This document shows, piece after piece, positions 34,844 to 53,332 of a stretch of DNA of 64,000 bases (position 1 is the stretch's first letter; every line of letters begins with the position of its first letter). Made by a program: the position numbers and the translations under genes. This DNA is from Catellatospora sp. TT07R-123 (GTDB lineage: Bacteria; Actinomycetota; Actinomycetes; Mycobacteriales; Micromonosporaceae), in NCBI RefSeq assembly GCF_018327705.1, contig NZ_BNEM01000001.1:992001-1056000 (forward strand), written 5' to 3'. The notes beneath the pieces were generated by a model. That model was not told the DNA's origin, searched no databases, and saw only the letters and a program-made list of their open reading frames with translations.

Positions 34844-36883
34844 TCAGCCGGCGACCGGGGTCTCGTTGTGCCAGGCGGAGTCGACCCACCAGGTCGACAG
34901 ACGATTGTCGCTGTTCAGGTAGTAGATCCACTGGCTGTTGACCCCCTCGGGCACGGCCGCCGGGCTCGTGCCCGCCGCCGCCGGGATACCGGTGAGGGTC
35001 TCGTTGTGCCACGAGCCGCCCGCCGGCACCCACCACGACGACAACTGGTTGCCCGCGTTGAGGTAGTAGATCCACTGGCCCCCGCTGCTGTTGGTGACCG
35101 TCGTGGGACTGCTGCCGGGCGCGGCGGCCACGCCGGTCAGCGTCTCGTTGTGCCAGGAGGTGCCGACCCACCAGGTCGACAACTGGTTGTTCGCGTTGAT
35201 GTAGTAGATCCACTGGCCGCCGCCGCTGTTGGTGACCGCGGCGGGGGTGGTGCCCGGTGAGGCTGCCACGCCGGTGAGGGTCTCGTTGTGCCACGAGCCG
35301 CCCGCCGGCACCCACCACGACGACAGCTGGTTGTTCGCGTTGAAGTAGTAGACCCACTGGCTGCCGCCGCTGTTGGTGACCGTCGCGGGGGTGGTGCCGG
35401 GTGCGGCGGCCACGCCGGTGAGGGTCTCGTTGTGCCAGGTCCCGCCGACCGCCGCCGTCCACCAGGTCGACAACTGGTTGTTCGCGTCGACGTAGTAGAT
35501 CCACTGCCCGACGCCGTCGTTCGTGATGATCGCGGGGCTGCTGCCAGGCGAGGCGGCGACGCCGGTCAGGGTCTCGTTGTGCCACGGCCCGCCGACCGGC
35601 GTCCACCAGGTCGACAGCTGGTTGTTCGCGTTGACGTAGTAGATCCACTGTCCGGCGCCGGTGATGACGATCGCGGGACGGGTGCCCGGCGACGCTTCTG
35701 CTCCGACGAGGGTCTGGCTGTGCCATACCCCGCCGACGGGCTTCCACATGCTGGAGATCTGGTTGCTCGCGTTGACGTAGTACACCCACACCGTTCCGGC
35801 GCCGTCGACGACGGCGACGGGGCGGCCCGGCGGCCGTACGGTCAGCGTGTAGGCGGTGTTGCGGGCGAACGAGGCGGTCGCCGCCCGGACCGTCACGGTG
35901 TACGTCCCGGCGGGGGTCGACGTGCTCGTCGTCAGGGTCATGGTCGACGATCCGCCGGTGGCCAGCGATGCCGGGCTGAAGGCGGCCGAGACGCCCGCAG
36001 GCAGGCCGAGCGCCGACAGGGTCACCGGCAGCGAGCCGCCGCTGGTGACGGTCGTGTTCACGGTGGCCGTGACGGCGCCGCCCGGGGTGGCCCGCCCCGA
36101 CGCCGGGCCGGTCGAGACCGAGAAGTCCGAGAACGTGGTGACCCGCAGGTGGTACGAGTTGGCGTTGGCGCCCGGGGAGCAGACGTTGAACTGCGACTGC
36201 GACGAGTCCCAGGTGAAGCCGCTCGGCACGGTGCAGGCCCACAGGTTGTCCGACGGCACCCGCATCCGGACGGAGTTCGCGTTCATGCCGGACCGGCATA
36301 CGTTGAACTGCGACTGCATCAGGTCGTACGTGTAGCCCGCAGGCAGCGAGCACGCGGTCAGACCGTCGACCGGAAGCCGGATGCGGAAGCTGTCCGCGTT
36401 GGCGCCCGGGGAGCAGACGTTGAACTGCGACTGCGCCAGCTCCCAGGTGAAGCCGCTCGGGACCGTGCAGGCCCACAGGCTGTCCGACGGCACCCGCATC
36501 CGGGTGGAGTTCGCGTTCATGCCCGGCCGGCACTTGTTGAACTGCGACTGCATCAGGTCGTACGTGTAGCCCGCGGGCAACGAGCACGCGGTCAGGCCGT
36601 CGGCGGGGGTGCGCAGGTGGTAGCTGTTGGCGTAGGCGTTGGCCACGCAGACGTTGTACTCGGAGCGCGCCTCGTCCCAGGTGTATCCGGTCGGCACGGT
36701 GCAGGCCCAGGTGTTGTCCAGCCCGGTGAGCGCCGTCCGGCCGGTCACGGCCGCGCCGGACACCGCGCCGGGCGGTGCCGGGCGTGCCACCGCCTGCGCC
36801 GCACCCGCCGGGAAAAGTGCTGTCGCCACTGCCATGGCGAACGCGGCGACGGTCCGCGCCCTCGCCTTCACACCACGTTCCAC
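34844..36883 (-). CDS. Secreted protein with cysteine repeats and seven-bladed propeller
   Basis: GTG 36883 follows GAGGAGAAG. The 679-residue protein has a signal peptide and then five repeats of about 45 residues (about 55-270) alternating two forms, ACTVPSGFTW...NVC and ACSLPAGYTYDLMQSQFN, each with two cysteines. A bacterial Ig-like domain follows (about 275-365, ending ATASFARNTAYTLTV). The C-terminus is seven blades of about 45 residues (QWIYYVNANNQLSTWW ... WHNETLTGVAASPG), exactly the number for a closed beta-propeller of the fucolectin/tectonin look. Repeated Trp residues suggest glycan binding. This looks like a multivalent secreted lectin or adhesin. Confidence 0.85.
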   Translation of the reverse strand: MERGVKARARTVAAFAMAVATALFPAGAAQAVARPAPPGAVSGAAVTGRTALTGLDNTWACTVPTGYTWDEARSEYNVCVANAYANSYHLRTPADGLTACSLPAGYTYDLMQSQFNKCRPGMNANSTRMRVPSDSLWACTVPSGFTWELAQSQFNVCSPGANADSFRIRLPVDGLTACSLPAGYTYDLMQSQFNVCRSGMNANSVRMRVPSDNLWACTVPSGFTWDSSQSQFNVCSPGANANSYHLRVTTFSDFSVSTGPASGRATPGGAVTATVNTTVTSGGSLPVTLSALGLPAGVSAAFSPASLATGGSSTMTLTTSTSTPAGTYTVTVRAATASFARNTAYTLTVRPPGRPVAVVDGAGTVWVYYVNASNQISSMWKPVGGVWHSQTLVGAEASPGTRPAIVITGAGQWIYYVNANNQLSTWWTPVGGPWHNETLTGVAASPGSSPAIITNDGVGQWIYYVDANNQLSTWWTAAVGGTWHNETLTGVAAAPGTTPATVTNSGGSQWVYYFNANNQLSSWWVPAGGSWHNETLTGVAASPGTTPAAVTNSGGGQWIYYINANNQLSTWWVGTSWHNETLTGVAAAPGSSPTTVTNSSGGQWIYYLNAGNQLSSWWVPAGGSWHNETLTGIPAAAGTSPAAVPEGVNSQWIYYLNSDNRLSTWWVDSAWHNETPVAG
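34850..35830 (-). repeat. Seven propeller-blade repeats
   Basis: Seven units of about 135-144 bp, highly similar at the DNA level (shared block around GTCTCGTTGTGCCA on the plus strand), encode the beta-propeller. Their near-identity indicates recent amplification. Confidence 0.85.
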
Positions 36884-37357: not shown

Positions 37358-38398
37358 TCAGCGGTGCTCGGGTTCGATGACGCAGATGCAGCCGATGGTC
37401 CGCGGGGAGCCGGTGTCGCCCTCGCTGAGCCAGGCGCTGACCGGCCACAGGATCCGGTCCCGGTCCGCGCCCTGCCGCACCACGAGCACCCTGCGCCCCA
37501 GGACCGGCCCCGGCACCTCCGACAGCGGCGCGCCGGCGCGCGGGATGCCCGCCGCCAGACCTGCCGCGGCGGCGGCCGCGGCGAGACCGGTGGCGCTGCG
37601 GGCCAGCAGCTCATCCCAGGCTCCGCCCGCGACCGGCGGGGTGACCATCTTGCGCAGGTCCGCCCCGGTGCCGACGAAGGCGGCGGGGACGAGGGTGCGC
37701 AGGTGCTCGTCGACGCGGCGCAGGGCCTGCAGCCGCTGCCAGGGCTCCGGCCTGGCCGTCACCTGCGCGACCCGGTCGCGGGCGGCCTGCTCGAACGCCT
37801 CGCGGTCGCGTACTGGTTCGTACGGCACCAGGGCCTGCTCGCCGGACGGGGCGTCGAGCCATACCCGGCCGAGGCCTTCGCCGTGCCGGGCGACCAGCAG
37901 CATGCCCTGCAACGCCTGAGCCATCGGCAGCCCGAGCACCGCGACGTCGTCCTCGGCGGGCTCCAGCCCCGCGCACCAGGTGGCCACGGTCTGGCCGATA
38001 CGCAGGGCGAAGTCCTGCGGCCCGGCCTCCATCGCGGCCACGAGCAGGCGATCTCGCAGTTCGTCGTCGCCGACCTGCTCGTCGTGCCGCCAGGCCCGGC
38101 CGCGGGCGCCGAGTTCGTCACACCACCGCGCGTACGCCAGCCGCAGCGTCGACGGCGGCGCGGGCGGCTGCTCGGACGCGATGCCGGCCGCCGCCACCAG
38201 CACCTGCGGGGCCGCCGGAACGGGCGGCAGCACGGACAGCCGCACCTCCACCGCGGCGAGTTCGAGGCCGGCGCCGGGCTGCGGCCGCCGGTAGCGGCGG
38301 GTGACCACGATGTCGTCGAGCGGGCCGCGCAGGCCCTCGGCGGCCAGGATCGCGGCCAGCGGCGCGAGGTCTGGCAGGTCGGGCAGGTCGTCGGGCAT
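37358..38398 (-). CDS. Fourth gene of the dynamin/ASKHA operon, unknown function
   Basis: ATG 38398 overlaps the stop of the ATPase gene by one base (TGATG), with AGGAG upstream. The 346-residue protein has no signal peptide and no clear transmembrane segment. A central region (VGDDELRDRLLVAAMEAGPQDFALRIGQTV) is helical, the Ala-rich stretch near 275-290 (GLAAAAAAAGLAAG) may be a helix, and the C-terminal 60 residues (GRRVLVVRQGADRDRILWPVSAWL) look like a strand-rich lid. I do not recognise the family. Position and coupling imply that it works with the ASKHA ATPase and the dynamin-like GTPase. Confidence 0.75.
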   Translation of the reverse strand: MPDDLPDLPDLAPLAAILAAEGLRGPLDDIVVTRRYRRPQPGAGLELAAVEVRLSVLPPVPAAPQVLVAAAGIASEQPPAPPSTLRLAYARWCDELGARGRAWRHDEQVGDDELRDRLLVAAMEAGPQDFALRIGQTVATWCAGLEPAEDDVAVLGLPMAQALQGMLLVARHGEGLGRVWLDAPSGEQALVPYEPVRDREAFEQAARDRVAQVTARPEPWQRLQALRRVDEHLRTLVPAAFVGTGADLRKMVTPPVAGGAWDELLARSATGLAAAAAAAGLAAGIPRAGAPLSEVPGPVLGRRVLVVRQGADRDRILWPVSAWLSEGDTGSPRTIGCICVIEPEHR

Positions 38399-41370
38399 CA
38401 GTGGTCTCCTGTGGTCGGGTCCCACGTCGGGTCCCAGTCGGTGCTGCTGTCGGGCATCGCCGTGGTGTAGACCCAGCCGGGCTCGGACTCCATCCGGACG
38501 AGGCTGTCGGTCTCCAGGAACTCCGGGTAGCCGGCGTTGACCCGCAGCCGCCCGTGCTGGTCCAGGACCGCCCAGAACGGCACGTCGGGCAGCAGGTAGT
38601 CGCCGTCGCGGAACTGCGGCGGCCGGATCCGGCCGAGCGGGACCGGGTCGGCGCCGGGGATGCGGGCCCGGAACACGAACGCGGCCGGGCGCAGGGTGCC
38701 GGTGCGGGTCACGGGCAGCGCGCTCGTGCTGACGGCGGCGGGCAGCCGGGAGGCCGCCAGCGGCCTGGTCGCCGCGTATGCCGTGCCCGAGGACGTCTCG
38801 GTGGCGAGGTCCACCGACAGCCGCTGCTCGGCGGTCCCGGTCCGGAACACGGTGACGTACTCGGGCTCGTCTTCGCCCTCCTCGACGGCGGCCACCTCGA
38901 TGTCGGGCAGCGTGAGCAGGTCGCCGTCCCGGTCGAAGTGCTCACCGAGGCGGCTGATCTGGAGCAGGTCGAGGTGTTCGCCGGCGTCCAGATCGGTGCC
39001 GTTCAGCGGGTGCAGGGCCGGGCGGACCGCGTCGCGGGTGCCGCGGCAGAACGAGATCCAGGCGTTGAGCTCCTGGTCGACGGCGATGCGATACCAGAGC
39101 CCGGCGGGCAGCGGCCCCGGGCGGTGGCGGCTGTACTGGTAGGCGCCCCACTGGACGGTCAGCTCCGGGCCGAGGATGCGGTGCAGGTGCAGGTCGTCGG
39201 AGTTGAGCCGCTTCCAGTCGGTGCAGGCGAACAGGTTGCCGGGTGGGGACGCCAGCACCCCGCGCCGGGTCGCCTTGTCGAGCACGGTGCCCTGGTGCAG
39301 CAGCGGCGGCACCCGGTCGTGGTCACCGGCGAGCCCGAAATCGCTGGGCAGGCAGGCAAGCAGGTTGTGGACACTGATCTCCAGCTGGTCCAGCCCCGCT
39401 TCGAGCCGCTGGTCGTCCACCCCGGACAGGCCCTTGACCGACCGGGCCCAGCAGGCGCCCAGGGACGCGGTCTGCTTGGCGTACGCGTGCTCGACCAGCA
39501 TGCCCTGCGGGTCCCAGGGGATGGGGCCGGCGCCGTCGCGGTCATGCCGCAGGAACTGCTCGGTCATCCGGGTGCGGATCAGGCCGTGCACGGCGGGCAT
39601 GGTGGTGGTGCGCCCCGACAGCGCGACCAGGTCCAGCTGCTCGCCGGGCTGGCGGCCCAGGGTGCGGCGGACGAGGCTGGCGGCCAGCCCCGCCGCGACG
39701 CCGACGACGGGCCGGATCATCCGGTCGAAGTCCTCCGGCGCGAGCACCACGGCGCCGTCGGGCAGGGCGCGTACGGCATCGCGCCAGGTGCAGTCCGACG
39801 GCAGGCTGTCGGCGAAGGTCTGCTCGATCCGGTAGCCCTTGCCCTGGGACAGATAGTTGATCTTCGCGTCCTCGGCCGCCTCCCACAGCCGGTCGAACGC
39901 CGCGGTGCGCACGCCCGGCGTCGCGGAGTGGCTGGGCAGCCGCTCGCGCAGGATGCGCCGGACGTCGTCGGTGACCGGCTTGGGGTGCCCGGACGCGAGC
40001 AGGCGCTCGGTCAGGGTGCGGTCGTCCGCGTCGCGGGCCGCGGGGGCGTGTCCGGCGTCGATCGCGTCGACGACGGCCGCCTTGAGCCAGTAGAAGACGC
40101 GCAGGGTGAGCAGGTCGCCGCCGAGCTGGGGGTGCCCGGTGGTGCCGAGCACGCGCGGGGTCAGCGTGTAGTGGCGCCCGCGCGGGCCGTCGGCTGCCGT
40201 ACCGCCGGGCCGGGTGGCGACGAGGTCGAGTGCCAGCAGCGCGATGTCGGTGGTGCCGCCGCCGATGTCGAGCACGAGGGCGTTGCGTCGCCAGGTCGGC
40301 AGCAGCGCCTGCTCGACCGGTCGGGCACCGGCCCGGAACGAGCGCAGCCCCGCCTCGACGTCGCCGCCGAAGCCGCGTACGACGAAGTAGAGGGCCGAGG
40401 CGACCGCCTCGTCGTAGTCCATGTGCACGCGCTCGACGGCGATGCCGGTGCCGTCGCTGACGGTGCGGCGCAGCCGGGCCCGTGCCGACGGCGGCAGGGT
40501 CGTCGGGTAGGTCACGGTGACCTCGTCGATCTCGCTGTCGGCGGGCACCTGGAGCCCGGCCAGCAGCGTCCGGGGCTGGCCGGCGTGCGCGACGGCCGCG
40601 CGGACCCGTTTGATCAGGTCGGCGTAGGACTGGGCGATCAGCAGGTCGGTGTCGGCCGGCCAGCCGTCGGGCACGGCGGCCGGGCCGAGGCCGCGCACCG
40701 GATCGGGGCGCAGCAGCCGCCGCTTGATGCCGGGGTGGTACACGATCCCGGCGGGCCGGTCGGCATCGGACACCGCGACGTCGACCAGGTGGGAGGCCTT
40801 GATGTCGGCGACGGCGACGGCGAGGATGCTGCGGATCTCGGGCTGGCGGTAGCCGTCGCGCAACCCGACCTGCCACAGCCGGTGCGCGTGCAGCGCGGGC
40901 ACCGCGAACACCCTGTCGTAGGCCCGGTGGACGGTGACGGCGAGCGCCGCCTGACCGGCCGCGCAGCGGTCGACGGCGATCGCGACGGCACGGCGCAGGT
41001 CGAGGTAGTCGCGGTCGGGGACGCCGTTCCACTGGTCGCCGATGCGCCGCAGCGCCTGCCTGATCTCGGTCAGGGCCGTGAACCGGTGGCTGCGGGTCGG
41101 GCCGTACACCGCGGCGACCTCTTTGAGCAGGTCCTGCTGGTGCGGGGCGAGCGCGGGGTCTTCGAGCAGCTCCAGCAGCACCTCGCGCAGCGCGGCCTCG
41201 TGTGCGGGGTCGAGGGCGACGACGTCGAGGTGGCTGCTCTCGTACAGGCTGGCCGTCGACGACCAGGTGCCCAGGTCGAGGGCGAGGTACTTGAGGCGCT
41301 GGCGGCGGTCGTCGGCCGCCACCGGCGGCAGCAGCGTCTGGCGGGCACGGTCGGTCGTGGGAGCGGTCAT
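38398..41370 (-). CDS. Hsp70/actin-fold (ASKHA) ATPase, SrfB-like
   Basis: A 990-residue protein with an actin/Hsp70 nucleotide-binding core spread over about 600 residues. Phosphate-1 is LALDLGTWSS (Asp 32), a connecting strand is VTVTYPTTLPP (about 284-294, comparable to the VITVPAYF of DnaK), then YDEAVASAL (319-327, like the NEPTAAAL segment), phosphate-2 VLDIGGGTTD (367-375) and an adenosine motif LVALSGRTTTMP (about 585-595). The C-terminal 370 residues are unlike a DnaK substrate domain. Size and pairing with a dynamin-like GTPase recall the enterobacterial SrfB-SrfC pair; homology is not proven. It starts 6 bp after the GTPase stop. Confidence 0.82.
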   Translation of the reverse strand: MTAPTTDRARQTLLPPVAADDRRQRLKYLALDLGTWSSTASLYESSHLDVVALDPAHEAALREVLLELLEDPALAPHQQDLLKEVAAVYGPTRSHRFTALTEIRQALRRIGDQWNGVPDRDYLDLRRAVAIAVDRCAAGQAALAVTVHRAYDRVFAVPALHAHRLWQVGLRDGYRQPEIRSILAVAVADIKASHLVDVAVSDADRPAGIVYHPGIKRRLLRPDPVRGLGPAAVPDGWPADTDLLIAQSYADLIKRVRAAVAHAGQPRTLLAGLQVPADSEIDEVTVTYPTTLPPSARARLRRTVSDGTGIAVERVHMDYDEAVASALYFVVRGFGGDVEAGLRSFRAGARPVEQALLPTWRRNALVLDIGGGTTDIALLALDLVATRPGGTAADGPRGRHYTLTPRVLGTTGHPQLGGDLLTLRVFYWLKAAVVDAIDAGHAPAARDADDRTLTERLLASGHPKPVTDDVRRILRERLPSHSATPGVRTAAFDRLWEAAEDAKINYLSQGKGYRIEQTFADSLPSDCTWRDAVRALPDGAVVLAPEDFDRMIRPVVGVAAGLAASLVRRTLGRQPGEQLDLVALSGRTTTMPAVHGLIRTRMTEQFLRHDRDGAGPIPWDPQGMLVEHAYAKQTASLGACWARSVKGLSGVDDQRLEAGLDQLEISVHNLLACLPSDFGLAGDHDRVPPLLHQGTVLDKATRRGVLASPPGNLFACTDWKRLNSDDLHLHRILGPELTVQWGAYQYSRHRPGPLPAGLWYRIAVDQELNAWISFCRGTRDAVRPALHPLNGTDLDAGEHLDLLQISRLGEHFDRDGDLLTLPDIEVAAVEEGEDEPEYVTVFRTGTAEQRLSVDLATETSSGTAYAATRPLAASRLPAAVSTSALPVTRTGTLRPAAFVFRARIPGADPVPLGRIRPPQFRDGDYLLPDVPFWAVLDQHGRLRVNAGYPEFLETDSLVRMESEPGWVYTTAMPDSSTDWDPTWDPTTGDH

Positions 41371-41376
41371 GGCGCA

Positions 41377-43788
41377 CTACCTCGCGGAGTCGGTCGGCGG
41401 GCCGGACAGGCCGCGCAGCACGGACGTGGGGGGGATCTGCTCGCCGATCAGGTCGAGCTTGCGGATGAGCCGGGTATGGGCGGCCAGCAGCGCGCTCTGG
41501 ATCCGGCGCCGGACCTGGTGGCTCAGGGCCTCGACGACGTCGCGGCGCAGCCGGAACAGCACCGCGGGGTCGCGGCGGGCGTCCTCGTCGTCGTGGTGGT
41601 CGATCTGCCACGGCACCGGCGTCGACGCCGACCGCGGGTAGGCGTAGTCGGCCTCGGTGCTGGGCAGGGCGCCGAGCTGGCGGCCTACCTCCTCGGTGAC
41701 CAGGCGCGGGTCCAGCAGCAGCGCGAAGTTGCGCAGGAACCCGTCGGCTACTGCGCCGCCGCGCACCAGCATGACCCGGCGCAGCTCATCGCGGTGGCGT
41801 TGCAGCGTCTGGGCGTCGGCGTCCAGGCCCAGCGACCGGTGCAGTTCCACGGCCCAGCGCCGCACCCGGTCGGTGAGCACGCTGTCGAGCACGGCCATCG
41901 CCTTGTCGCGGGTCTCGTCGTAGCTGCCCGCGAGGTCGGCGGTGGTCACCAGCAGCTGCGCCTCGCCCGGCTGGGCCACCGTCGGCCCCGTATGCCAGCC
42001 GCCCGCGCCACCGGAGTAGAGGTCGTCGAAGTCCCCGTCGAACAGGTCGCCGTCCGGACCGGCCGGACCGCCCGGACGCAGCAGGCCCGAGTCGATCCGG
42101 CTCAGATGCCCGGTCCAGCACGGCCAGTCGTGCACCCGGCCGACGATCGCCGCCTCGACCAGCTCCTCGAACTCCTTCTCGGTCGGGACCAGCACCAGTT
42201 CGGCCATGCGGGGCTTGAGGTGGTCCACCGCCGTCCGCAGCCGCCGCAGCAGCTCCTCCAGCCGGCGCCGCTCCTGCTCACCGACCCCGACCGGCACCCG
42301 GACCGGCAGCTCGTCGTCGAAGGCCTGCCGGGCGGCCAGGTAGGCCTGCTCCAGGCCGTGCGCCTCGGCCAGCCAGATCCGGCTGCCGTGCTCGCCGAGG
42401 TGCCCGGTCAGCAGCTGCCGCAGATGCCCCAGCCCGCCGTCGTCGTCGGTGAAGTGCGCCAGCGCCGTGACCATCGGGTCGTCGCGGTGGGTCGCGCGCA
42501 GAGATCGTACTGTCGGCGCCCACCGGTCACCGGATCCCCGCGCCACGTACAGGTCATGCGAGGTCGCGCCGCGCGGGGCCGGGGCGCCGAGGAACATCCC
42601 CGCCCGCAGCGCCGACACCAGCGCGAATCGTTCGAAATGCTGGCGGGTCAGCTCCCCCACCATCGCGGTCAGGGCCGCCACATTGTCGCTGTGCTCGGTC
42701 AGCTCCCGCAGCGACCGCGCGACCGGCGACGGCGGCTCCACCGGGTCGAACTTGTTCCCGATGACCAGCATCGACTTGTCCAGCTCGCCGTAGTCGTGGC
42801 GGCCCTGCTCCAGCATGGAGAAGAACTCCTTGACCGAGTCGCTGGTCGGCTCCCGGCCGTCGACGACCACCGCGACGACGGTGGTGCGCGGCAGCTCCCG
42901 GCTGATCAGGTAGCGGTCGCGCAGGCTGCCCGAGTCCAGCCCCGGAAAGTCGATCAGCTCGATCGCGGTGTCGAGGTCGAGCACGCTGCGGGGCACCCCG
43001 ACGGTGATCACCACCTGGTCGATCAGGCTGCGGGTGGCCAGCAGCGTGTCGGCGCTCATCCGGTCCGGGGAGATCGGCGCGCCGTAGCGCGGCTCCGGGA
43101 ACTGCTCGGTCGGGGTGTGCGACGTCCCGATCAGCACGGCCGAGTCGAGCAGCTCCCGCCGGATCGGCGTCAGCTGGCCCCGGGTACGGGCCAGCAGCCC
43201 CGCCCCGACGCGCAGCGCGTCGCGTACCGCGAACAGCTCGGTGGCCCACTCGCGCAGTTTCAGGTTCATCGTCGGGTCGGCCCACCAGGACCGGAACAGG
43301 TCCTCGACCAGCCGCCAGTCGGCCTGCTCGATCCGGGCGGCGTCGACCGGGTGGTAGCCGTCGAGCACGTGCGCGCCGTAGCGGCCGCTGCGCCCGGCGT
43401 GCGTACGGATGCCTTCCAGCAGGTACTCCACCAGCTCGACGACGCCCTCGGGCGTCATGTAGCCGACCACCGCGTCCTCGCCGTACGCCGCGTCCGGCCG
43501 CACCACGACCCGGGTGAGGTTGCCGGTGGCGGGCACGTCGGCGACGGTCAGCAGCCCCGGCCGGTCCACCAGCAGCGTGATCAGCAGGGACTTGCCCTTG
43601 TTGACGTCACCGGCGAACCCGATGCTGATGTTGCGCGCGACCGCCGCCCGCAGCTCCTCGGCCGCCCGCAGCGCCTGCTGCCACAGCAGCAGCAGCCGGG
43701 GCGACGTCGGCCGCTGCGGTTCCAGTTCCGTGACAGCCTGCTCGGCCAGGGTGGCCAGGCGGTGCCGCTCGGCCTTGTCGATGATCAT
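41377..43788 (-). CDS. Dynamin-like large GTPase (SrfC-like)
   Basis: ATG 43788 overlaps the upstream stop by ATGA. The 803-residue protein has G1 GDVNKGKS (60-67), G3 DFPG (280-283) and G4 NKFD (345-348); the 200-residue gap between G1 and G3 includes a helical insertion. The remaining 450 residues are mainly helical (EEFEELVEA..., RRRLEELLRRLRTAVDHLK), consistent with a bundle and stalk of the dynamin type. Such proteins remodel membranes or act as switches, and in bacteria several protect against phage. The gene lies between a DUF4407 membrane protein and the ASKHA ATPase, all translationally linked. Confidence 0.85.
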   Translation of the reverse strand: MIIDKAERHRLATLAEQAVTELEPQRPTSPRLLLLWQQALRAAEELRAAVARNISIGFAGDVNKGKSLLITLLVDRPGLLTVADVPATGNLTRVVVRPDAAYGEDAVVGYMTPEGVVELVEYLLEGIRTHAGRSGRYGAHVLDGYHPVDAARIEQADWRLVEDLFRSWWADPTMNLKLREWATELFAVRDALRVGAGLLARTRGQLTPIRRELLDSAVLIGTSHTPTEQFPEPRYGAPISPDRMSADTLLATRSLIDQVVITVGVPRSVLDLDTAIELIDFPGLDSGSLRDRYLISRELPRTTVVAVVVDGREPTSDSVKEFFSMLEQGRHDYGELDKSMLVIGNKFDPVEPPSPVARSLRELTEHSDNVAALTAMVGELTRQHFERFALVSALRAGMFLGAPAPRGATSHDLYVARGSGDRWAPTVRSLRATHRDDPMVTALAHFTDDDGGLGHLRQLLTGHLGEHGSRIWLAEAHGLEQAYLAARQAFDDELPVRVPVGVGEQERRRLEELLRRLRTAVDHLKPRMAELVLVPTEKEFEELVEAAIVGRVHDWPCWTGHLSRIDSGLLRPGGPAGPDGDLFDGDFDDLYSGGAGGWHTGPTVAQPGEAQLLVTTADLAGSYDETRDKAMAVLDSVLTDRVRRWAVELHRSLGLDADAQTLQRHRDELRRVMLVRGGAVADGFLRNFALLLDPRLVTEEVGRQLGALPSTEADYAYPRSASTPVPWQIDHHDDEDARRDPAVLFRLRRDVVEALSHQVRRRIQSALLAAHTRLIRKLDLIGEQIPPTSVLRGLSGPPTDSAR

Positions 43789-45146
43789 CGCGTGCCGTCC
43801 TTGTCGTCGGGATGGCGCTGCTCGTAGCGCAGGTGGTCGGCGCGCCGGTCGCGGTAGTGGCGGTCGCGCTCGTTGTCGAGTTCGGTCAGCATCTGGGCCT
43901 GGAACGCCCGCCGGTGCGCGTTCAGGTCGGCGGCGGCCCGGTCGACCTGCAACTGCACCCGGTCGTGGTAGCGCACCCGCTGGGCCTGCTCGGACAGGCG
44001 CCGCCCGTAGATCGACGCCCCGGCCAGCAGCTTCATGCCCAGCGGGATGAGGTCGATGGCCAGCAGCAGGATCCGCAGCAGCCACGGGATCACCACCAGT
44101 TCGGTGCTGCCGGGATGGGCGGCCCGGAAGTCGCGGAACGCCTGCTCCTGACGCAGCCACCCGGCCGGCTGGCCGCGCTGGGCGTCGGCCTCGGCGATCG
44201 CCGGGTCGGCCAGCAGCGCCCGGTGCTCCACCGAGGTCTCGTCGGCCAGCGCACTCTGCTTGGCCTGGAGGTCCCGGTCGCCCTTCTCCTGGTCGGCCAG
44301 GGCCCGGTTCAGCGCCTTCTGCGCGTTGTTCTTCGCATCCAGAGCCGTGCGCCAGATCGCGTACAACCGGGCCGCGTACGGGCCGTGTCCGGCGGCGCCG
44401 GAGATGAGCCCCTTGACCTCGCGCTCGTACCGGCCGTACGCCGTGTCCGCCTCGGCGGTCTTGAGCTTGAGTTCATCGCGCCGCGCGCTGACGGCCACGG
44501 CCAGTTTGACCTGCTCGGCGTTCAGGTCGTCCTGCCGAGCCGCGACCACGTGGTCCACGGCGGCGGTGTACGCCGTGAGCCGGTCGGCGCGGATCTGCTC
44601 CTCGATCTCGGGGTGGAACACGATCAGCAGCAGCGCCTCGCTGATCAGGACCGCGATGGTGACCGCCACGACGACGCGCAGCAGGTACACCGGCAGCCGG
44701 ACGACCGGCCACAGCGACCGCGGCCGGCGGCGGGCCTGCCCGGCGACGTCCAGCGGCACCGTCGCGTCGGGGTCGGGCAGGACCCGTGCCGAGATCGGCT
44801 GCCGGTCGGCGTGCTGCTCCACCGCCGACAGGTCCCCGTAGGACGGGTCGACCAGGATGGACCGGTCCACCGCGAAGATGATCGCGCCCCAGAACAGCGC
44901 CGCCGCGACGTACCAGAGCCGGAACTGGCCGGTGATGATGGTGACGTACATGGTGAAGGTCACCGACGCCAGCGCCCCGACCACGAGCACGAGGATGCCG
45001 ACGCTGGCACCGCGATAGGTCTCCACCCGCGAGGCCAGCAGCCCGGGGTCCACGCCGCCGCACCACAGCAGCGCCCGGGTGACCCGGCCGGGCCGGTAGT
45101 CGTCGCCGCGCCGGCGACGGCGGCGCCACGGCCAGTACAGCCTCAC
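43785..45146 (-). CDS. DUF4407 membrane protein with coiled coil
   Basis: GTG 45146 with AAGGG eight bases upstream is chosen; the longer frame runs through promoter sequence. The 453-residue protein has two transmembrane helices at about 47-95 with the DUF4407 signature FAVDRSI after the second, a third near 152-175, a long extramembrane coiled coil (about 190-320, many Glu, Lys and Ala) and a fourth helix near 345-368, then a charged C-terminal helix. The function of the family is unknown. As first gene of a coupled operon with a dynamin-like GTPase it may provide the membrane anchor or sensor. Confidence 0.85.
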   Translation of the reverse strand: MRLYWPWRRRRRRGDDYRPGRVTRALLWCGGVDPGLLASRVETYRGASVGILVLVVGALASVTFTMYVTIITGQFRLWYVAAALFWGAIIFAVDRSILVDPSYGDLSAVEQHADRQPISARVLPDPDATVPLDVAGQARRRPRSLWPVVRLPVYLLRVVVAVTIAVLISEALLLIVFHPEIEEQIRADRLTAYTAAVDHVVAARQDDLNAEQVKLAVAVSARRDELKLKTAEADTAYGRYEREVKGLISGAAGHGPYAARLYAIWRTALDAKNNAQKALNRALADQEKGDRDLQAKQSALADETSVEHRALLADPAIAEADAQRGQPAGWLRQEQAFRDFRAAHPGSTELVVIPWLLRILLLAIDLIPLGMKLLAGASIYGRRLSEQAQRVRYHDRVQLQVDRAAADLNAHRRAFQAQMLTELDNERDRHYRDRRADHLRYEQRHPDDKDGTR

Positions 45147-45233
45147 GATCTGCCCTTCCCCGTGCCCTGGGGCGGGCCGGCCGCCACCCCGAACGGGCTC
45201 CAGAATGGCCGCCGCCGCCACCCGACGTCACCG

Positions 45234-45248
45234 GTTGCCTGTTGCCTG
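45234..45248. promoter_or_regulatory. GTTGCCTGTTGCCTG motif (regulon site A)
   Basis: A direct repeat of GTTGCCTG lies between the divergent DUF4407 operon and the XRE gene. The core GTTGCCTGT recurs in the next divergent region at 47683, so it is probably the XRE regulator's site. Confidence 0.6.
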
Positions 45249-45316
45249 ACCGACACGGCCCACCCGGCGGGCACCCGGCTGCCCGTTCGGTCCTCGGCCC
45301 CCTCGCCTACCGGCTC

Positions 45317-45322
45317 TAAAGT
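45317..45322 (+). promoter_or_regulatory. Candidate -10 box of the XRE gene
   Basis: TAAAGT, a TAnnnT hexamer in GC-rich surroundings, 21 bp before the XRE start codon. Confidence 0.35.
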
Positions 45323-45343
45323 GGAGCGGGGGGTGGGTCGCCG

Positions 45344-46501
45344 ATGTCGGCATTCGGGTACGAGCTGCGTCGCCTGCGTACGGCGGCGGGGCTGTCGCTG
45401 CAAGGGCTGAGCCAGGTCGTGCACTACAACAAGGGCTACCTCAGCCGGGTCGAGACCGGCGAGCGCACCCCGACGACGCAACTCGCCCGCGCCTGCGACG
45501 ACGCGCTGGGCACCGACGGGCGCCTGACCGAACTGCTGCGGGGCACGGCCGCGCCGAGCGCCGCGGCCGCCGACCCCTCGGTCGCGGCCGCCGAGGGCGC
45601 CTGCCTGCCGGTCCTGCCCCCGGCCGCCGACCCGTCGTGGGCGCAGCCGCTGTCCGACGTCCTCGGCGCGACCCGCGCCCTGGGCCAGCGCGCGCCGGTG
45701 CGCACCGTGCTGCCCCCGATGCTGGCCCAGCTGCGCACCCTCAGCGACCTGACCGCACCGCCCGGCGACGGCCGGCACCTGCTCGGCGTCTACGCCCGCT
45801 TCGCCGAGTACACCGGCTGGCTGTACCAGGAGACCGACGACCGCGTCGGGTCCGCCCGCTGGAACGCCCAGGCCCGGCAGCTGGCCCGGCGGGTCGGCGA
45901 CGACAGCCTCGCCGCGTACACCGTGGTCCGCGACGCCGAACTGGCCATGTACAGCGGCGACGCCGCCATGACGATCCGGTACGCGCAGCTGGCCCAGCAC
46001 GATCCGGCCGCCACCGCGCAGACCCGGGTGCTGGCCGCGCACCGCGAAGCGCAGGGCCACGCGCTGGCCTACGACGCCGACCGGATGCGCGCGGCCCTGG
46101 ACCAGGCACTGGCCTGGCAGGAGTCGGGCACCGAGGCGGCCGGGCACGGTTCACGCAGCGTCGGCGACCCGCACGCCGTGACCGCGGGCTGGTGCCACTA
46201 CGAGCTCGGCCGCTACCGGCACGCCGCCGACCAGCTCGAACGCGGCTGGAACAGCATCAGCCCGGACTCGCGCCGCATGCGGGCCATCATCGGCAGCCGC
46301 CTGGCCCTGGCGCACCTGGGCAGCCCCGATCTCGACCGCGCCTGCGAGGTCGGGCGCGAGGCGCTGCGGCTGACCCTGCTGACCGAGTCGGCGACCGCCC
46401 GCGGGCAGCTGCGGCTGCTGGCCCGCGAGCTGCACCGCCGCCGCGGCCACCCGCCCGCCGCGGCGCTGTACACCGAGCTCACGACGCTGCTGCCGCGCTG
46501 A
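45344..46501 (+). CDS. XRE-family regulator with TPR-like C-terminal domain
   Basis: ATG 45344 has a G-rich ribosome site (GGAGCGGGGGG). The 385-residue protein has an N-terminal HTH (LRRLRTAAGLSLQGLSQVV, then YLSRVETGERTPT) and a helical repeat region from about 145 to 385 resembling TPRs (AAGHGSRSVGDPHAVTAGWCHYELGRY). Such regulators read a peptide or small ligand with the TPR part. It is divergent from the DUF4407 operon and convergent with the deoxyribosyltransferase-Nudix gene, whose 3' end it overlaps by 23 bp. It probably controls both sides. Confidence 0.88.
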   Translation: MSAFGYELRRLRTAAGLSLQGLSQVVHYNKGYLSRVETGERTPTTQLARACDDALGTDGRLTELLRGTAAPSAAAADPSVAAAEGACLPVLPPAADPSWAQPLSDVLGATRALGQRAPVRTVLPPMLAQLRTLSDLTAPPGDGRHLLGVYARFAEYTGWLYQETDDRVGSARWNAQARQLARRVGDDSLAAYTVVRDAELAMYSGDAAMTIRYAQLAQHDPAATAQTRVLAAHREAQGHALAYDADRMRAALDQALAWQESGTEAAGHGSRSVGDPHAVTAGWCHYELGRYRHAADQLERGWNSISPDSRRMRAIIGSRLALAHLGSPDLDRACEVGREALRLTLLTESATARGQLRLLARELHRRRGHPPAAALYTELTTLLPR

Positions 46502-47757: not shown

Positions 47758-49056
47758 GTGAAGTCCCTCGCCGTGTTCCACCCCGCCAACGACGCCGGAC
47801 AGCAGCTGCTCGACGACTTCATCCGGCCCCTGTGCACCCGATACGGCCTGCCGGTGCAGGTGATCCCGGCCGGCGCCACCCGCGCCGCGGGCCTGGCCGT
47901 GCAGCTCACCCGTACCTTCGTGGTGTGGGACCTGTCGGTGGAGGGCCCGGAGAACGTCTACGCCGCCATGCCGATGCAGGCGAAGCTGCATCCGCGCAAC
48001 CTGCTGGTCAGCCGCACCCCGCTGCCGCGAAACGTCCTCGGGCAGCACCAGTGCGCGCCGATCCACGGCCACACGTTCCCCAACGAGCTGCTCGGCGAAT
48101 GGCTCGACCGGCACCTGCACGAACACCTGGTCGGCCCGGCCGGGGCCGGAACCTACCCGCGCATGGCCGCCCACTACTGGATGAACGAGCACCCGGCCGA
48201 CTACTTCCTCAGCTTCCGCGGCTCGCACCAGGCGCAGGCCGAGGCCTGGCGGGACCGGTTCGAGGCCGCACACGGTGTGTCGGTGCGCATGGTGCCGCCC
48301 AACGAGTACTCCTACCCCACCGAGGTCGTCACCCGGCAGCAGCTGTGGGAGGGCGTGGCCCGGCTGATGCGCGAGATCCAGGCGACCCGCCGCGCGGTCG
48401 TCCTCCTCAGCGACGACTACTACGACTCGTTCTGGACCGCGTCGGAGCTGCTGGTGCTGCTGTGGCTGGCCTACCGCCCACCGGCACGCGGCAGGCAGGA
48501 CCTGGAACGGCCGGAGGTCCACTTCGCCGCCTCGGCCGCGCGTACCGACCTGGCGCCCCTGGCCGCCGCCCTCGACCACGGCATCCCGATCCCGACGTCG
48601 GACCACGCCCTGCGGCTGGTGTACCTGATCAACAACACCGACCCGGTGACCTCGGCGCCGGAGACCCAGGTGCCGGCTCGCGGCCTGGGCCGCCTCATCG
48701 CCCGCGCCGTCCGCACCCGCTACGGCTACTACCAGCCCGAATTCCAGACCCACGACTTCTGGCACCAGGTCCGGGTGCCCTGCCCGCAGTGCCACCCGCA
48801 CCACCGCCAAGCGGCCGACGTCGACTGGGCGGCGCACATGGCCACGGCCGATGAAGGCCCGGTCGACTACTTCGGCTACTTCGCCGCCGACCCGGCCGAC
48901 CTGGCATCGGGCCGACTGACCTGCCCGGGTTGCGGCAACGGACTGGACATCGCCAATCGGCGCGGCGTACGCACCCTGTGGTCGCCCGTGATGAGCACCG
49001 AGAAGGACCAGGACCGGCCCGCCCTGAACCACCTCCCGCTATGGGAGGTGGTGTGA
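47758..49056 (+). CDS. TIR-domain protein with C-terminal zinc ribbon
   Basis: GTG 47758, apparently leaderless. A 432-residue cytoplasmic protein. Residues 1-125 form an alpha/beta domain of unknown type (AVFHPANDAGQQLLDDF). The TIR domain spans about 147-260: box 1 DYFLSFRGSH (148-157) matches the classic plant-type box, and the catalytic helix SDDYYDSFWTASELL carries Glu 230 in the FWxxxE motif, as in NAD-cleaving TIRs. A four-cysteine zinc ribbon (Cys 342, 345, 389, 392) follows. TIR NADases mediate abortive infection in bacteria. The neighbouring degenerate Nudix fusion could sense or bind the product; that is inference. Confidence 0.85.
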   Translation: MKSLAVFHPANDAGQQLLDDFIRPLCTRYGLPVQVIPAGATRAAGLAVQLTRTFVVWDLSVEGPENVYAAMPMQAKLHPRNLLVSRTPLPRNVLGQHQCAPIHGHTFPNELLGEWLDRHLHEHLVGPAGAGTYPRMAAHYWMNEHPADYFLSFRGSHQAQAEAWRDRFEAAHGVSVRMVPPNEYSYPTEVVTRQQLWEGVARLMREIQATRRAVVLLSDDYYDSFWTASELLVLLWLAYRPPARGRQDLERPEVHFAASAARTDLAPLAAALDHGIPIPTSDHALRLVYLINNTDPVTSAPETQVPARGLGRLIARAVRTRYGYYQPEFQTHDFWHQVRVPCPQCHPHHRQAADVDWAAHMATADEGPVDYFGYFAADPADLASGRLTCPGCGNGLDIANRRGVRTLWSPVMSTEKDQDRPALNHLPLWEVV

Positions 49057-49532: not shown

Positions 49533-50870
49533 TCAGGGGGCATGGGCGACGCACTGCGAACTCCAGCTTTCGCTTTGCTGGGGAGGATGGAAGGGCCGGC
49601 TCAGTTCTTCAAGCTGACGGAGCAGGCCTTTCAGTTCAGCCTTGCCTGCAACGAATTCGAGGACGGCCCGCTCGAACGCGGCGGCCAGTTCCGGAGGCAT
49701 CGTGTCGGACGCGTCGAGGCAGAGCGTGCTCGCGTTGGCGAGAGCGGCGAGCTTGTCGTTGATCAGGCCATGGTCGCCATCGGCCGGAACCGCCGATGCT
49801 CCGCCCTGTTCGAACCAGAGCCGCTGCGCACCTGCCGCAGGTGTCAGATATCGCAGAAGTTCGACGGCATTCTGGTCGTCGGTCATCAGCGCGGCGAAGT
49901 CGGATGAGACCTCGAAGACCTTGGAGCCTTGCCGGCTCTCGGACTCCGGGAATGGGAAGAAATCGAAGCTGGCACGAGCTCCAGGGCTGCCTGCGGGCGA
50001 TTCGGGCGCGCCCACGGCCGGCGACCCGGAGGCTGCCAGCAGGCCGGCCATAAAGGAGCCTTGATGATGGAACCGGCAACGCCGCTGCAGGAGAGGCGTG
50101 CCGGCCACGTCGTAAGTGGTGAGGAGCGCACCTGTGCGCCCACCGAGAACCATATTCTCGGGCGCGAAGAGCCCGCCGAACGTCTCCCATGCCTTTTCGA
50201 CACTCGGCGATGTCCAGGAGAGGCGGCCCGAGGCCCAGTCGGCGTACTCGCCGGGTCCGGCCTGGTGCAACAGGATGTCCTCGATCCAGTCTGTTCCCGC
50301 CCAGCCGGCCTGCGAGGTGGCACCCAGACCTATGCACCAGCCCGCGCGGTCGCGCAGGGCCGACGCGGCGGCGGCGGCCGAACGGAGCTCGCTCCAGTTG
50401 GCCGGTGGGTGCTGAACGAACTCCTGATCTACGCGAGGATCGAACCAGACGATGCTCTTCAACGTGGTCTTGACGGCGATCGCGTAGGGCCGGTTCGCGT
50501 CGCGCAGCATGCGGTTCGGCGAGTCCTCAGGCGCTGTCTCCAGGAACTCGAGTGAGCGGAACTCCGCTTGGTGGGCTGCCAGGTCCCCCGCGGACGGCAT
50601 GATCACCACGTCCGGCGACTGCCCTTCCTCGATCAGCGAGCGCAGGGCCTGCGAGACGTCTCGGGTGCCCTGGTAGTCGACTTCGACACCGTGCTGTGCC
50701 CCGAACTCGTCCAGGACCGCTTGGAAGACCTGCTGCTCGCCGCCGGTCCAGGAGCCCAGAACCACCAGCTTTCCAGGAGCGCCGCCGGTGTTGCAGCCCG
50801 TCAGGCCGGCCATTGCCATGATCACTGCTGTCAGCATCCCCACCGGATGCGGCCGCACTCGCACGGTCAC
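49533..50870 (-). CDS. Solute-binding lipoprotein (family 1-like)
   Basis: GTG 50870 overlaps the upstream stop by GTGA. The 445-residue protein has a lipoprotein signal (MAMAGLTGC) and a type II periplasmic-binding fold: KLVVLGSWTGGEQQVFQAVL, later PDVVIMPSAGDLAAH and AYAIAVKTTLKSIVWFDP. It resembles sugar/peptide family-1 binding proteins. No permease or ABC ATPase is nearby, so it is probably a ligand receptor, not an import component. The next gene upstream encodes a membrane protein with extracellular domains that could receive the signal, as GlnX does from GlnH in mycobacteria. Confidence 0.88.
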   Translation of the reverse strand: MTVRVRPHPVGMLTAVIMAMAGLTGCNTGGAPGKLVVLGSWTGGEQQVFQAVLDEFGAQHGVEVDYQGTRDVSQALRSLIEEGQSPDVVIMPSAGDLAAHQAEFRSLEFLETAPEDSPNRMLRDANRPYAIAVKTTLKSIVWFDPRVDQEFVQHPPANWSELRSAAAAASALRDRAGWCIGLGATSQAGWAGTDWIEDILLHQAGPGEYADWASGRLSWTSPSVEKAWETFGGLFAPENMVLGGRTGALLTTYDVAGTPLLQRRCRFHHQGSFMAGLLAASGSPAVGAPESPAGSPGARASFDFFPFPESESRQGSKVFEVSSDFAALMTDDQNAVELLRYLTPAAGAQRLWFEQGGASAVPADGDHGLINDKLAALANASTLCLDASDTMPPELAAAFERAVLEFVAGKAELKGLLRQLEELSRPFHPPQQSESWSSQCVAHAP

Positions 50871-51919
50871 CGCTGGTACTCCCGAAGGCGTGGCACGAGG
50901 CCGAGAACTGATGAGATCGTGGCGAGCACGGCGAGAAGGCTGGTCCAGCCGATGCTCCCGCTCGCCACACCTTCCATGATCACCTGCGCCCGCGTGAAGT
51001 CCGGCACCGAGACCTTCGCCTTCACGCCCCCTGCCGTCGAAACAGGCTGATCCAGCAGACACTTCGGGCACTGGCCCTCGACAACAGGTAGCAGCTGTGC
51101 TTGCGCCGACGCGGCCTGCTGATCGAAGTAGGCGAAATCATGCGTGTACTTTCGTTCCTCCCGCAATTGGTCGCCCGCCAGCCATGGTGTGGCTGCGACG
51201 ACGCCGACCGCCAGCACTAGCGCGGTGGCTGCCACGAAGAGCAGGCTCAGGAGCCGACGGAAGCGCCGGGCCAGCAGGATCTGAACTCCCACCAACCCGC
51301 ACAGGAACATGACTACCGGAAGCAACCACAGCACCCACGTGAGCTGGCTCTCCGGTCCGGCGGCCAAGATCTCGTCGTAGGCATTCGCATTGCTGTGGAG
51401 CAGCTCTTTGAGCTTCGGAAGTATCTCCAGATAGAGCAGGTGCGAGGCGTAACTCAGATAGGCGGCCGCAAGCGCCTGGGCATCGATTCGCAGGTAGGAT
51501 TCGACTTTTCCTGCCAGCGCCAGATAACTGATGAGCAGTCCTTGCGTGAGCTGGATATTCCGGCTCTCGGCCGTGTCGGCGACGCTGTGCTCGGCCAGTT
51601 GTGCCAGGCGCCGGCCTGCGGTCGCCACCGCGTTCTCGTATCCGACTCCACGTCCGAGCACCTCGACCGATTGATCGTCGAAGCTGGCGACCAACGCACG
51701 GTCGGCCCTGATCAGCGACTCCTGAGTCAGCGCGATGAGGCGCTGCGACTTGACGATGTGATCGATGGCGTCGGTCGCGTCCTGGACCCGCTGGACAGCA
51801 AGGGCCGGACCGATCAGGGTCAGCACGCCGGTCGCCACCAACCCGGCCAGCAGCAGCCGCAGCATGCGAGCTGTGGTCCAGTACCCAGGTGCTGTGCCGG
51901 TCAGACCGAGTCGCCTCAT
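50867..51919 (-). CDS. Four-helix membrane sensor (GlnX-like layout)
   Basis: A 350-residue protein with start overlapping the VWA stop by ATGA. Helix 1 (about 19-41) is followed by about 155 extracellular, mostly helical residues (QRVQDATDAIDHIVKSQRL ... ILPKLKELLHSN). Helices 2 and 3 (about 198-219 and 228-247) are a hairpin, followed by a second outer segment with a CPKC pair (about 288-291) and helix 4 (about 320-342). The outer four-helix-bundle look is that of chemoreceptor-type ligand domains. Its position between a binding lipoprotein and a PknG-like kinase mirrors mycobacterial GlnX (Rv0412c). No sequence identity is claimed. Confidence 0.75.
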   Translation of the reverse strand: MRRLGLTGTAPGYWTTARMLRLLLAGLVATGVLTLIGPALAVQRVQDATDAIDHIVKSQRLIALTQESLIRADRALVASFDDQSVEVLGRGVGYENAVATAGRRLAQLAEHSVADTAESRNIQLTQGLLISYLALAGKVESYLRIDAQALAAAYLSYASHLLYLEILPKLKELLHSNANAYDEILAAGPESQLTWVLWLLPVVMFLCGLVGVQILLARRFRRLLSLLFVAATALVLAVGVVAATPWLAGDQLREERKYTHDFAYFDQQAASAQAQLLPVVEGQCPKCLLDQPVSTAGGVKAKVSVPDFTRAQVIMEGVASGSIGWTSLLAVLATISSVLGLVPRLREYQR

Positions 51920-53289: not shown

Positions 53290-53332
53290 TCAAGCCCTTT
53301 CTGATTTCGGCGGCCCGGATTCGCAGCGGGTG

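What the first reader, a model, noticed from the sequence alone, without database searches (positions are those of the whole stretch)
37358..45146. DUF4407, dynamin-like GTPase, ASKHA ATPase operon
Four genes overlap or nearly touch (ATGA, 6 bp, TGATG). A membrane anchor, a GTPase and an Hsp70-fold ATPase are co-produced. The GTPase/ATPase pair recalls enterobacterial srfB-srfC, but the addition of DUF4407 and a 346-residue partner differs. This may be an undescribed membrane-remodelling or immunity machine.
Basis: partly seen in the sequence, partly recalled or inferred. Interest (0 to 1): 0.8.

Follow-up and report, generated by a model that had tools for sequence, protein, structure and literature searches.

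The report
Membrane-anchored GTPase and Hsp70-like machine
Four tightly packed bacterial genes encode a membrane protein, a dynamin-like GTPase, an Hsp70-like ATPase and a small partner; the last three form a core that recurs in other bacteria with different membrane proteins attached, which suggests a little-known membrane-surveillance or defence machine.

Summary
On the minus strand, DUF4407 (45146-43785), a dynamin-like GTPase, a SrfB/Hsp70-type ASKHA ATPase and a 346-aa partner form one overlapping operon. The ASKHA is a remote SrfB homologue (hhalign 97%, below Pfam's cut-off) and is at least as close to DnaK. The GTPase resembles SynDLP and other bacterial dynamins more than SrfC. The partner is not SrfA, and gene order differs from srfABC. 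The same four-gene operon occurs in three other genomes of the family, and the four ASKHAs form a supported clade. Beyond that, GTPase-ASKHA-partner is a conserved three-gene core in actinomycetes and cyanobacteria. Most actinomycete versions carry a different membrane protein nearby: DUF4407, signal/TM-vWA plus tubulin-like, 3-TM protein with vWA and PP2C, or others. The core is rare (18 of 355 family genomes, 0 of 10 genus-mates) and here lies in a variable region. Relatives carry Pycsar-like and Leo-like genes alongside. Best reading: an ATPase-gated dynamin-like membrane machine with an exchangeable membrane sensor, probably for envelope or phage defence. The defence role is inferred, not shown. 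It is a new variant of a known kind (SrfBC-like and GTPase/HSP70 conflict systems).

The parts
43785..45146 (-). DUF4407 membrane protein, 453 aa: about 4 TM segments (roughly residues 45-73, 75-100, 150-178, 347-375), a long coiled-coil-like stretch (about 180-345) between TM3 and TM4, charged C-terminal helix
   Evidence: PF14362 E 2.3e-35; hydropathy; 39% identical to DUF4407 of the G695 locus
41377..43788 (-). dynamin-like GTPase, 803 aa; starts in ATGA overlap with DUF4407
   Evidence: G1/G3/G4 motifs; family profile vs SynDLP E 1.5e-7, BDLP 0.009; 38% identity to G695 GTPase
43588..43611 (-). GTPase G1/P-loop GDVNKGKS (residues 60-67)
   Evidence: sequence
42940..42951 (-). GTPase G3 DFPG (residues 280-283)
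   Evidence: sequence
42745..42756 (-). GTPase G4 NKFD (residues 345-348)
   Evidence: sequence
38398..41370 (-). ASKHA (Hsp70/SrfB-type) ATPase, 990 aa
   Evidence: PF07520 E 1.5e-4, sub-threshold; family profile vs DnaK E 2.6e-9, vs SrfB hhalign 96.9%
40246..40269 (-). ASKHA phosphate-2 motif DIGGGTTD (residues 368-375); D, G, G, T, T, D invariant in 10 homologues
   Evidence: alignment A8
41254..41283 (-). ASKHA phosphate-1 motif ALDLGTWSST (residues 30-39)
   Evidence: alignments A1/A8
37358..38398 (-). partner protein, 346 aa; starts in TGATG overlap with the ASKHA; divergent member of a partner family
   Evidence: 32% identity, E 2e-12 to G695 partner, which matches the wider family profile at 3.2e-10
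45147..45343 (.). 197-bp divergent intergenic region upstream of the operon, shared with an XRE-type (NsdA-family) regulator at 45344-46501; presumed promoter region, no sigma-70 consensus found

Best explanation
The four genes encode one membrane-associated complex. DUF4407 is the membrane subunit: a multi-TM protein whose long coiled-coil segment probably lies outside the membrane, with a charged tail in the cytoplasm. It tethers and signals to a cytosolic core of a dynamin-like GTPase, an Hsp70-type ASKHA ATPase and the partner. Proposed cycle: an envelope disturbance (phage DNA entry, pore formation or loss of membrane integrity) is sensed through DUF4407; the ATP-driven ASKHA conformational switch, aided by the partner, releases or assembles the GTPase; the GTPase then polymerises on the inner leaflet and remodels, seals or destroys the membrane locally. 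Shown here: gene identities, intact nucleotide-binding motifs, operon structure, four-gene conservation, and a three-gene core that occurs with several different membrane proteins. Inferred: physical complex, order of events, membrane target, and the surveillance/defence role.
For: Overlapping stop/start codons imply co-translation. Identical four-gene operons in G003, G700 and G695; the DUF4407-type ASKHAs form one clade, 99/96 support. The GTPase-ASKHA-partner order recurs in other actinomycete loci and, without a neighbouring membrane protein seen, in Fischerella; Rhizonema has the ASKHA and partner plus a cut GTPase. Membrane proteins beside the core differ by version. GTPase profile matches SynDLP/BDLP; the ASKHA profile matches DnaK in two regions. 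Patchy distribution, 18/355 in the family and 0/10 genus-mates, inside a segment that varies between genus members. Relatives G003, G700 and G091 carry Crp-cNMP, cyclase-like and PycTM-like genes beside the core; G003 and G700 also carry Leo-type dynamins. A bacterial dynamin, B. subtilis DynA, gives phage resistance (PMC8844932, abstract). SrfA, B and C, the nearest known trio, form a heteromeric complex (PMC6950479).
Against: No defence-library model fits any of the four proteins. The cyclic-nucleotide module and Leo dynamins are absent beside the window's own operon. The nearby TIR-like gene is not linked to the operon elsewhere. AlphaFold models of the GTPase and partner failed (pLDDT about 34), so a dynamin stalk is not demonstrated. 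The window's partner is recognised as family only through the G695 homologue. SrfABC itself has been tied to swarming (PMC4219756) and cytotoxicity (PMC6950479), not to immunity.
Confidence: 0.45

Rival explanations
1. Housekeeping-like envelope machine of filamentous actinomycetes and cyanobacteria: the GTPase-ASKHA core remodels membranes in septation, branching or sporulation, with no immune role.
For: The core also occurs in filamentous cyanobacteria (Fischerella, Rhizonema). Versions are coupled to tubulin-like and vWA proteins that look cytoskeletal.
Against: Absent from 337 of 355 family genomes and from all 10 other members of the genus, and here in a segment variable within the genus: not the pattern of a developmental gene.
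Confidence: 0.22
2. A true SrfABC-family system (surface motility / secreted cytotoxin type) that has diverged in actinomycetes.
For: Remote SrfB homology; same kinds of components (ASKHA + GTPase + third protein).
Against: Below both Pfam cut-offs; GTPase closer to SynDLP/Leo dynamins than to SrfC; partner unrelated to SrfA; gene order differs; an integral membrane subunit is added.
Confidence: 0.12
3. A sensor arm of a larger cyclic-nucleotide (Pycsar-like) defence module; the window copy is a stand-alone remnant.
For: Crp-cNMP + cyclase-like + PycTM-like genes abut the core in G003, G700 and G091, and Crp and cyclase-like genes lie within about 7 kb in G695.
Against: The window has no such genes nearby although its four ORFs are intact; the cyclase family is common in the family as a whole (76 of 201 genomes).
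Confidence: 0.13
4. Four genes co-located by chance or an annotation artefact.
For: None found.
Against: The same order in four genomes with 32-44% identity between window and nearest relative; overlapping codons.
Confidence: 0.01

Closest known systems
SrfABC (Salmonella, Xenorhabdus; compared here with Erwinia sp. OLFS4 and Yersinia alsatica)
   Same: An ASKHA of about 990 aa adjacent to a GTPase of about 800 aa plus a third protein; SrfB remote homology through TYPT/YDEA/DIGGGTTD segments
   Different: Order SrfA-SrfB-SrfC versus GTPase-ASKHA-partner; partner not SrfA; GTPase much closer to SynDLP/Leo; extra DUF4407 membrane protein
GTPase-centric conflict systems with tubulin and HSP70 (Kaur et al. 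2020, PMC7159879)
   Same: TRAFAC GTPases combined with HSP70 and tubulin in actinomycetes; sister versions of the core found here carry Tubulin_2/vWA, or vWA + PP2C; one carries DO-GTPase2
   Different: The window's operon has no DO-GTPase and no tubulin; DUF4407, Srf and dynamin are not mentioned in the main text of that paper
Bacterial dynamin-like proteins (SynDLP, BDLP, DynA, LeoABC)
   Same: GTPase domain similarity; membrane role; DynA gives phage resistance
   Different: Coupled to an Hsp70-type ATPase and a DUF4407 membrane protein; long divergent C-terminal region
DUF4407 family (PF14362)
   Same: The membrane protein is a clear member
   Different: Other DUF4407 genes in the 18 core-positive genomes mostly lie elsewhere, away from an ASKHA/GTPase core (second copy in this genome at L051, 26% identity over 293 aa)

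Membership tests
SrfB (PF07520) | Score above the curated Pfam cut-off over most of the model | tested here: not met
   20.4 bits vs 27.1; 134 of 990 residues aligned. 7 of 8 homologues also hit, best 1.4e-7
SrfB (PF07520) | Detectable homology at profile level | tested here: met
   hhalign prob 96.9, E 1.3e-10 over 158 columns; but DnaK scores higher (39 bits) than Erwinia SrfB (27 bits) with the family profile
SrfC (PF10139) | Profile homology to SrfC | tested here: inconclusive
   10.7 bits vs 28.1; hhalign prob 41%, E 2.9e-4, G1 region only
SrfABC operon | SrfA homologue present; order A-B-C | tested here: not met
   Partner vs SrfA hhalign prob 0.1; order GTPase-ASKHA-partner
Dynamin-like GTPase | Dynamin-type GTPase domain with G1/G3/G4 | tested here: met
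   Motifs; SynDLP 1.5e-7; Dynamin_N itself 23.1 bits vs 27, so below the Pfam cut-off for this one sequence
Dynamin-like GTPase | Helical stalk/bundle and membrane-binding paddle | tested here: inconclusive
   AlphaFold with 3 sequences: pLDDT 34.9
ASKHA / Hsp70 ATPase | Phosphate-1, phosphate-2 and adenosine motifs | tested here: met
   ALDLGTWSST, DIGGGTTD and LSGRTTTMP in the window; key residues invariant in 10 homologues; DnaK E 2.6e-9
DUF4407 (PF14362) | Pfam cut-off exceeded | tested here: met
   122.8 bits vs 31.3
DO-GTPase conflict systems | DO-GTPase (PF19975/PF19993) in the operon | tested here: not met
   No hit in the four proteins; present only in the L018 relative
Known anti-phage systems (PADLOC) | Match to defence models | tested here: not met
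   Only LeoA 15 bits, E 0.0024 for the GTPase
Anti-phage defence function | Reduced phage plating with the operon | not testable with these tools
   needs an experiment

The most novel reading that the evidence does not exclude
The GTPase-ASKHA-partner trio is an undescribed modular core of membrane machines. It plugs into alternative membrane subunits: DUF4407; a signal/TM-vWA protein with a tubulin-like GTPase; a 3-TM protein with vWA and PP2C; others. In the tubulin version the dynamin-like subunit has lost all its GTP motifs while a tubulin-like GTPase has been added, as if the GTP-driven polymer had been swapped while the Hsp70-type regulator stayed. The DUF4407 version here would be the dynamin-powered envelope-immunity form.
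Probability: 0.3. Interest if true: 0.8.

Novelty: new variant of a known kind. Interest (0 to 1): 0.58.

Why it matters
SrfB and SrfC have carried the label 'virulence factor' for years without a molecular mechanism. A four-gene, membrane-anchored relative in soil actinomycetes, plus cyanobacterial relatives, points to an ancestral role in membrane surveillance rather than virulence. It also gives a compact system (one ATPase, one dynamin, one membrane anchor) in which an Hsp70-type regulator of a bacterial dynamin could be tested directly.

Tried and rejected
(1) Partner = SrfA: rejected. (2) TIR-like gene 47758-49056 as part of the system: rejected; 3 of 355 family genomes have it and the other two (G061, G031) lack the core. 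(3) Carriage by plasmids or viral contigs: no GTPase match in plasmids and no ASKHA relative in viral contigs. (4) AlphaFold of the GTPase and partner, restricted to window and the search for related loci sequences: useless models, so no fold search was run. (5) First genome-contig scan with the single ASKHA sequence found nothing; the alignment scan found cyanobacterial and true SrfB loci. (6) Rickettsia 'SrfA-G' effectors share only the name, so were not used (PMC11258249). (7) sigma-70 promoter scan: nothing above chance.

Full report
1. What is there. The four minus-strand genes are real and at the stated coordinates. Junctions: DUF4407/GTPase share ATGA at 43788-43785; GTPase stop TAG, six bases, ASKHA ATG at 41370; ASKHA TGA overlaps the partner's ATG (TGATG at 38400). 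DUF4407 is a clear Pfam member (E 2.3e-35) with about four hydrophobic segments and a long coiled-coil-like stretch between the third and fourth. The GTPase has GDVNKGKS, DFPG and NKFD. The ASKHA has ALDLGTWSST and DIGGGTTD, whose key residues are invariant in ten homologues. Promoter scanning gave nothing above chance. The operon is divergent from an XRE/NsdA-type regulator at 45344-46501.

2. Relatives. Searching 151 and then 355 genomes of the same family, the ASKHA was found in 8 and then 18 genomes, in 7 of 44 genera, and in none of the 10 other members of the genus. In samples of 396 genomes of the phylum and 399 of the order only G000 and G003 were hit, so it is rare outside this family; the first-look filter may miss divergent copies. 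A named-genome scan found the core in the cyanobacteria Fischerella muscicola and Rhizonema (the latter with a GTPase cut by the contig end), and genuine SrfB in Erwinia sp. OLFS4 and Yersinia alsatica. No relative was found in viral contigs (ASKHA) or plasmids (GTPase).

3. Conserved neighbourhood. I fetched 20-kb neighbourhoods and called genes. The order GTPase - ASKHA - partner is shared by nearly all of them; in L017 and the TerY-type loci the third gene is missing or not clearly the same family. Four versions are distinguishable. (a) DUF4407 version: window, G003 (L015), G700 (L056), G695 (L057), with DUF4407 first in each. (b) Tubulin version (L019-L021, L052, L053, L055, L059): a signal/TM vWA protein and a Tubulin_2 protein follow, and in the six copies checked the GTPase homologue lacks G1, G3 and G4. 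(c) vWA/PP2C version with a 3-TM protein (L060-L062). (d) Others, with 2-TM or single-TM proteins (L016, L058), DO-GTPase2 (L018), or no clear membrane partner (L017, L054). In a maximum-likelihood tree the four DUF4407-type ASKHAs form a clade (99/96), sister to L016/L017 (100/99); in the GTPase tree window + L057 and L015 + L056 are each firm pairs but do not group. Window proteins are 32-44% identical to their G695 counterparts.

4. The partner. Profiles from the tubulin set recover the other actinomycete and cyanobacterial partners (E 1e-12 to 8e-7), and profiles from the first eight recover the cyanobacterial ones at about 1e-28 or better, so it is one family. The G695 partner belongs to it (3.2e-10). 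The window's partner is too divergent for the profile on its own (E 0.7) but matches the G695 partner at E 2e-12 and sits at the same place with an overlapping start, as in G695.

5. Srf comparison. ASKHA against SrfB: Pfam 20.4 bits (cut-off 27.1), hhalign 96.9% over 158 columns, pairwise E 2e-7. With the family profile, DnaK structures score 39 bits (E 2.6e-9) against 27 and 15 bits for the two SrfBs, so the protein is Hsp70-like at least as much as SrfB-like. GTPase against SrfC: 41%, G1 region only; SynDLP E 1.5e-7 and Leo-type dynamins score higher. Partner against SrfA: none. Conclusion: the same kinds of parts, remotely related, not an srfABC operon.

6. Genomic context. The SNF2 gene at 57406-59586 is conserved in all 11 genomes of the genus at 83-86% DNA identity. 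In G133 and G016 it lies about 10-14 kb from the FtsX/ABC/two-component block that corresponds to window 11.9-17.1 kb; in the window this distance is about 40 kb with unrelated content. The operon is therefore in a region that varies within the genus. Next to the core in G003, G700 and G091 lie a Crp-type cNMP-binding protein, a class-III-cyclase-like protein (VDIEKYS...GDGRL) and a PycTM-like membrane protein (PycTM E 1.8e-5 in G700); in G695 Crp and cyclase-like genes lie within about 7 kb. G003 and G700 also carry Leo-type dynamins and an Hsp70-like gene there. The cyclase family is found in 38% of family genomes, mostly one or two copies each, so adjacency in four of the six loci of this clade is unlikely to be chance, though G003 and G700 are not independent. 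The window has none of these genes.

7. Function. From the anatomy I propose a membrane-tethered, ATPase-gated dynamin (see best explanation). Precedents: DynA protects B. subtilis populations against phage (PMC8844932, abstract); SrfA, B and C form a complex (PMC6950479); GTPase + HSP70 + tubulin gene sets in actinomycetes were predicted to be conflict systems (PMC7159879). That paper's main text contains no Srf, dynamin or DUF4407, and the three papers in the library that mention DUF4407 are, by title and abstract, not about such an operon. Defence is an inference; an envelope or developmental role remains open.

8. Limits. Structure prediction was limited to three-sequence alignments and failed. 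The host family is unnamed; high GC, 9.2 Mb and the family's make-up suggest Micromonosporaceae (inference). The G695 GTPase is cut by an assembly gap (an X in its translation). Gene calls in relatives came from a simple codon-based caller, not a published gene finder.

Noticed in passing
L019:6794-8911, L020:10991-13009, L021:11507-13600, L052:7052-9067, L053:6848-8863, L055:11794-13854: In the version of the core that carries a Tubulin_2 protein, the dynamin-like subunit has lost its P-loop, DxPG and N/TKxD motifs in all six copies checked, but keeps the conserved C-terminal W/P/R residues: a pseudo-GTPase beside a tubulin-like GTPase.
   Followed up: partly
L056:863-6940; L015:13434-20000; L016:16224-18490: Crp/cNMP-binding + cyclase-like + PycTM-like gene set next to the core in two genera; in G700 and G003 followed by two Leo-type dynamins and an Hsp70-like gene.
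   Followed up: partly
window 49533-57273: Minus-strand operon: solute-binding protein, 350-aa protein, vWA protein, PknG-like kinase with TPR, trypsin-like protease: looks like an extended GlnH-GlnX-PknG arrangement; locally lower GC (66-68%).
   Followed up: no
window 47758-49056: TIR-like protein (TIR_2 E 0.0056; FLSFRGS...FWTASEL motif) with a Cys-rich C-terminal part; found in only 3 of 355 family genomes, the other two 54-58% identical.
   Followed up: partly
window 17.1-57.4 kb: Variable segment between FtsX/ABC and SNF2 anchors: about 40 kb here, about 10-14 kb of unrelated genes in two genus-mates.
   Followed up: partly
L060-L062: Divergent ASKHA + GTPase pair with TerY-like vWA, PP2C and a 3-TM protein: a further version of the core, its ASKHA with no Pfam hit.
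   Followed up: partly
window 34844-36883: Secreted-looking 679-aa protein with internal repeats (QWIYYVNANNQLSTWW..., and GYTYDLMQSQFN... repeats), no clear family.
   Followed up: no
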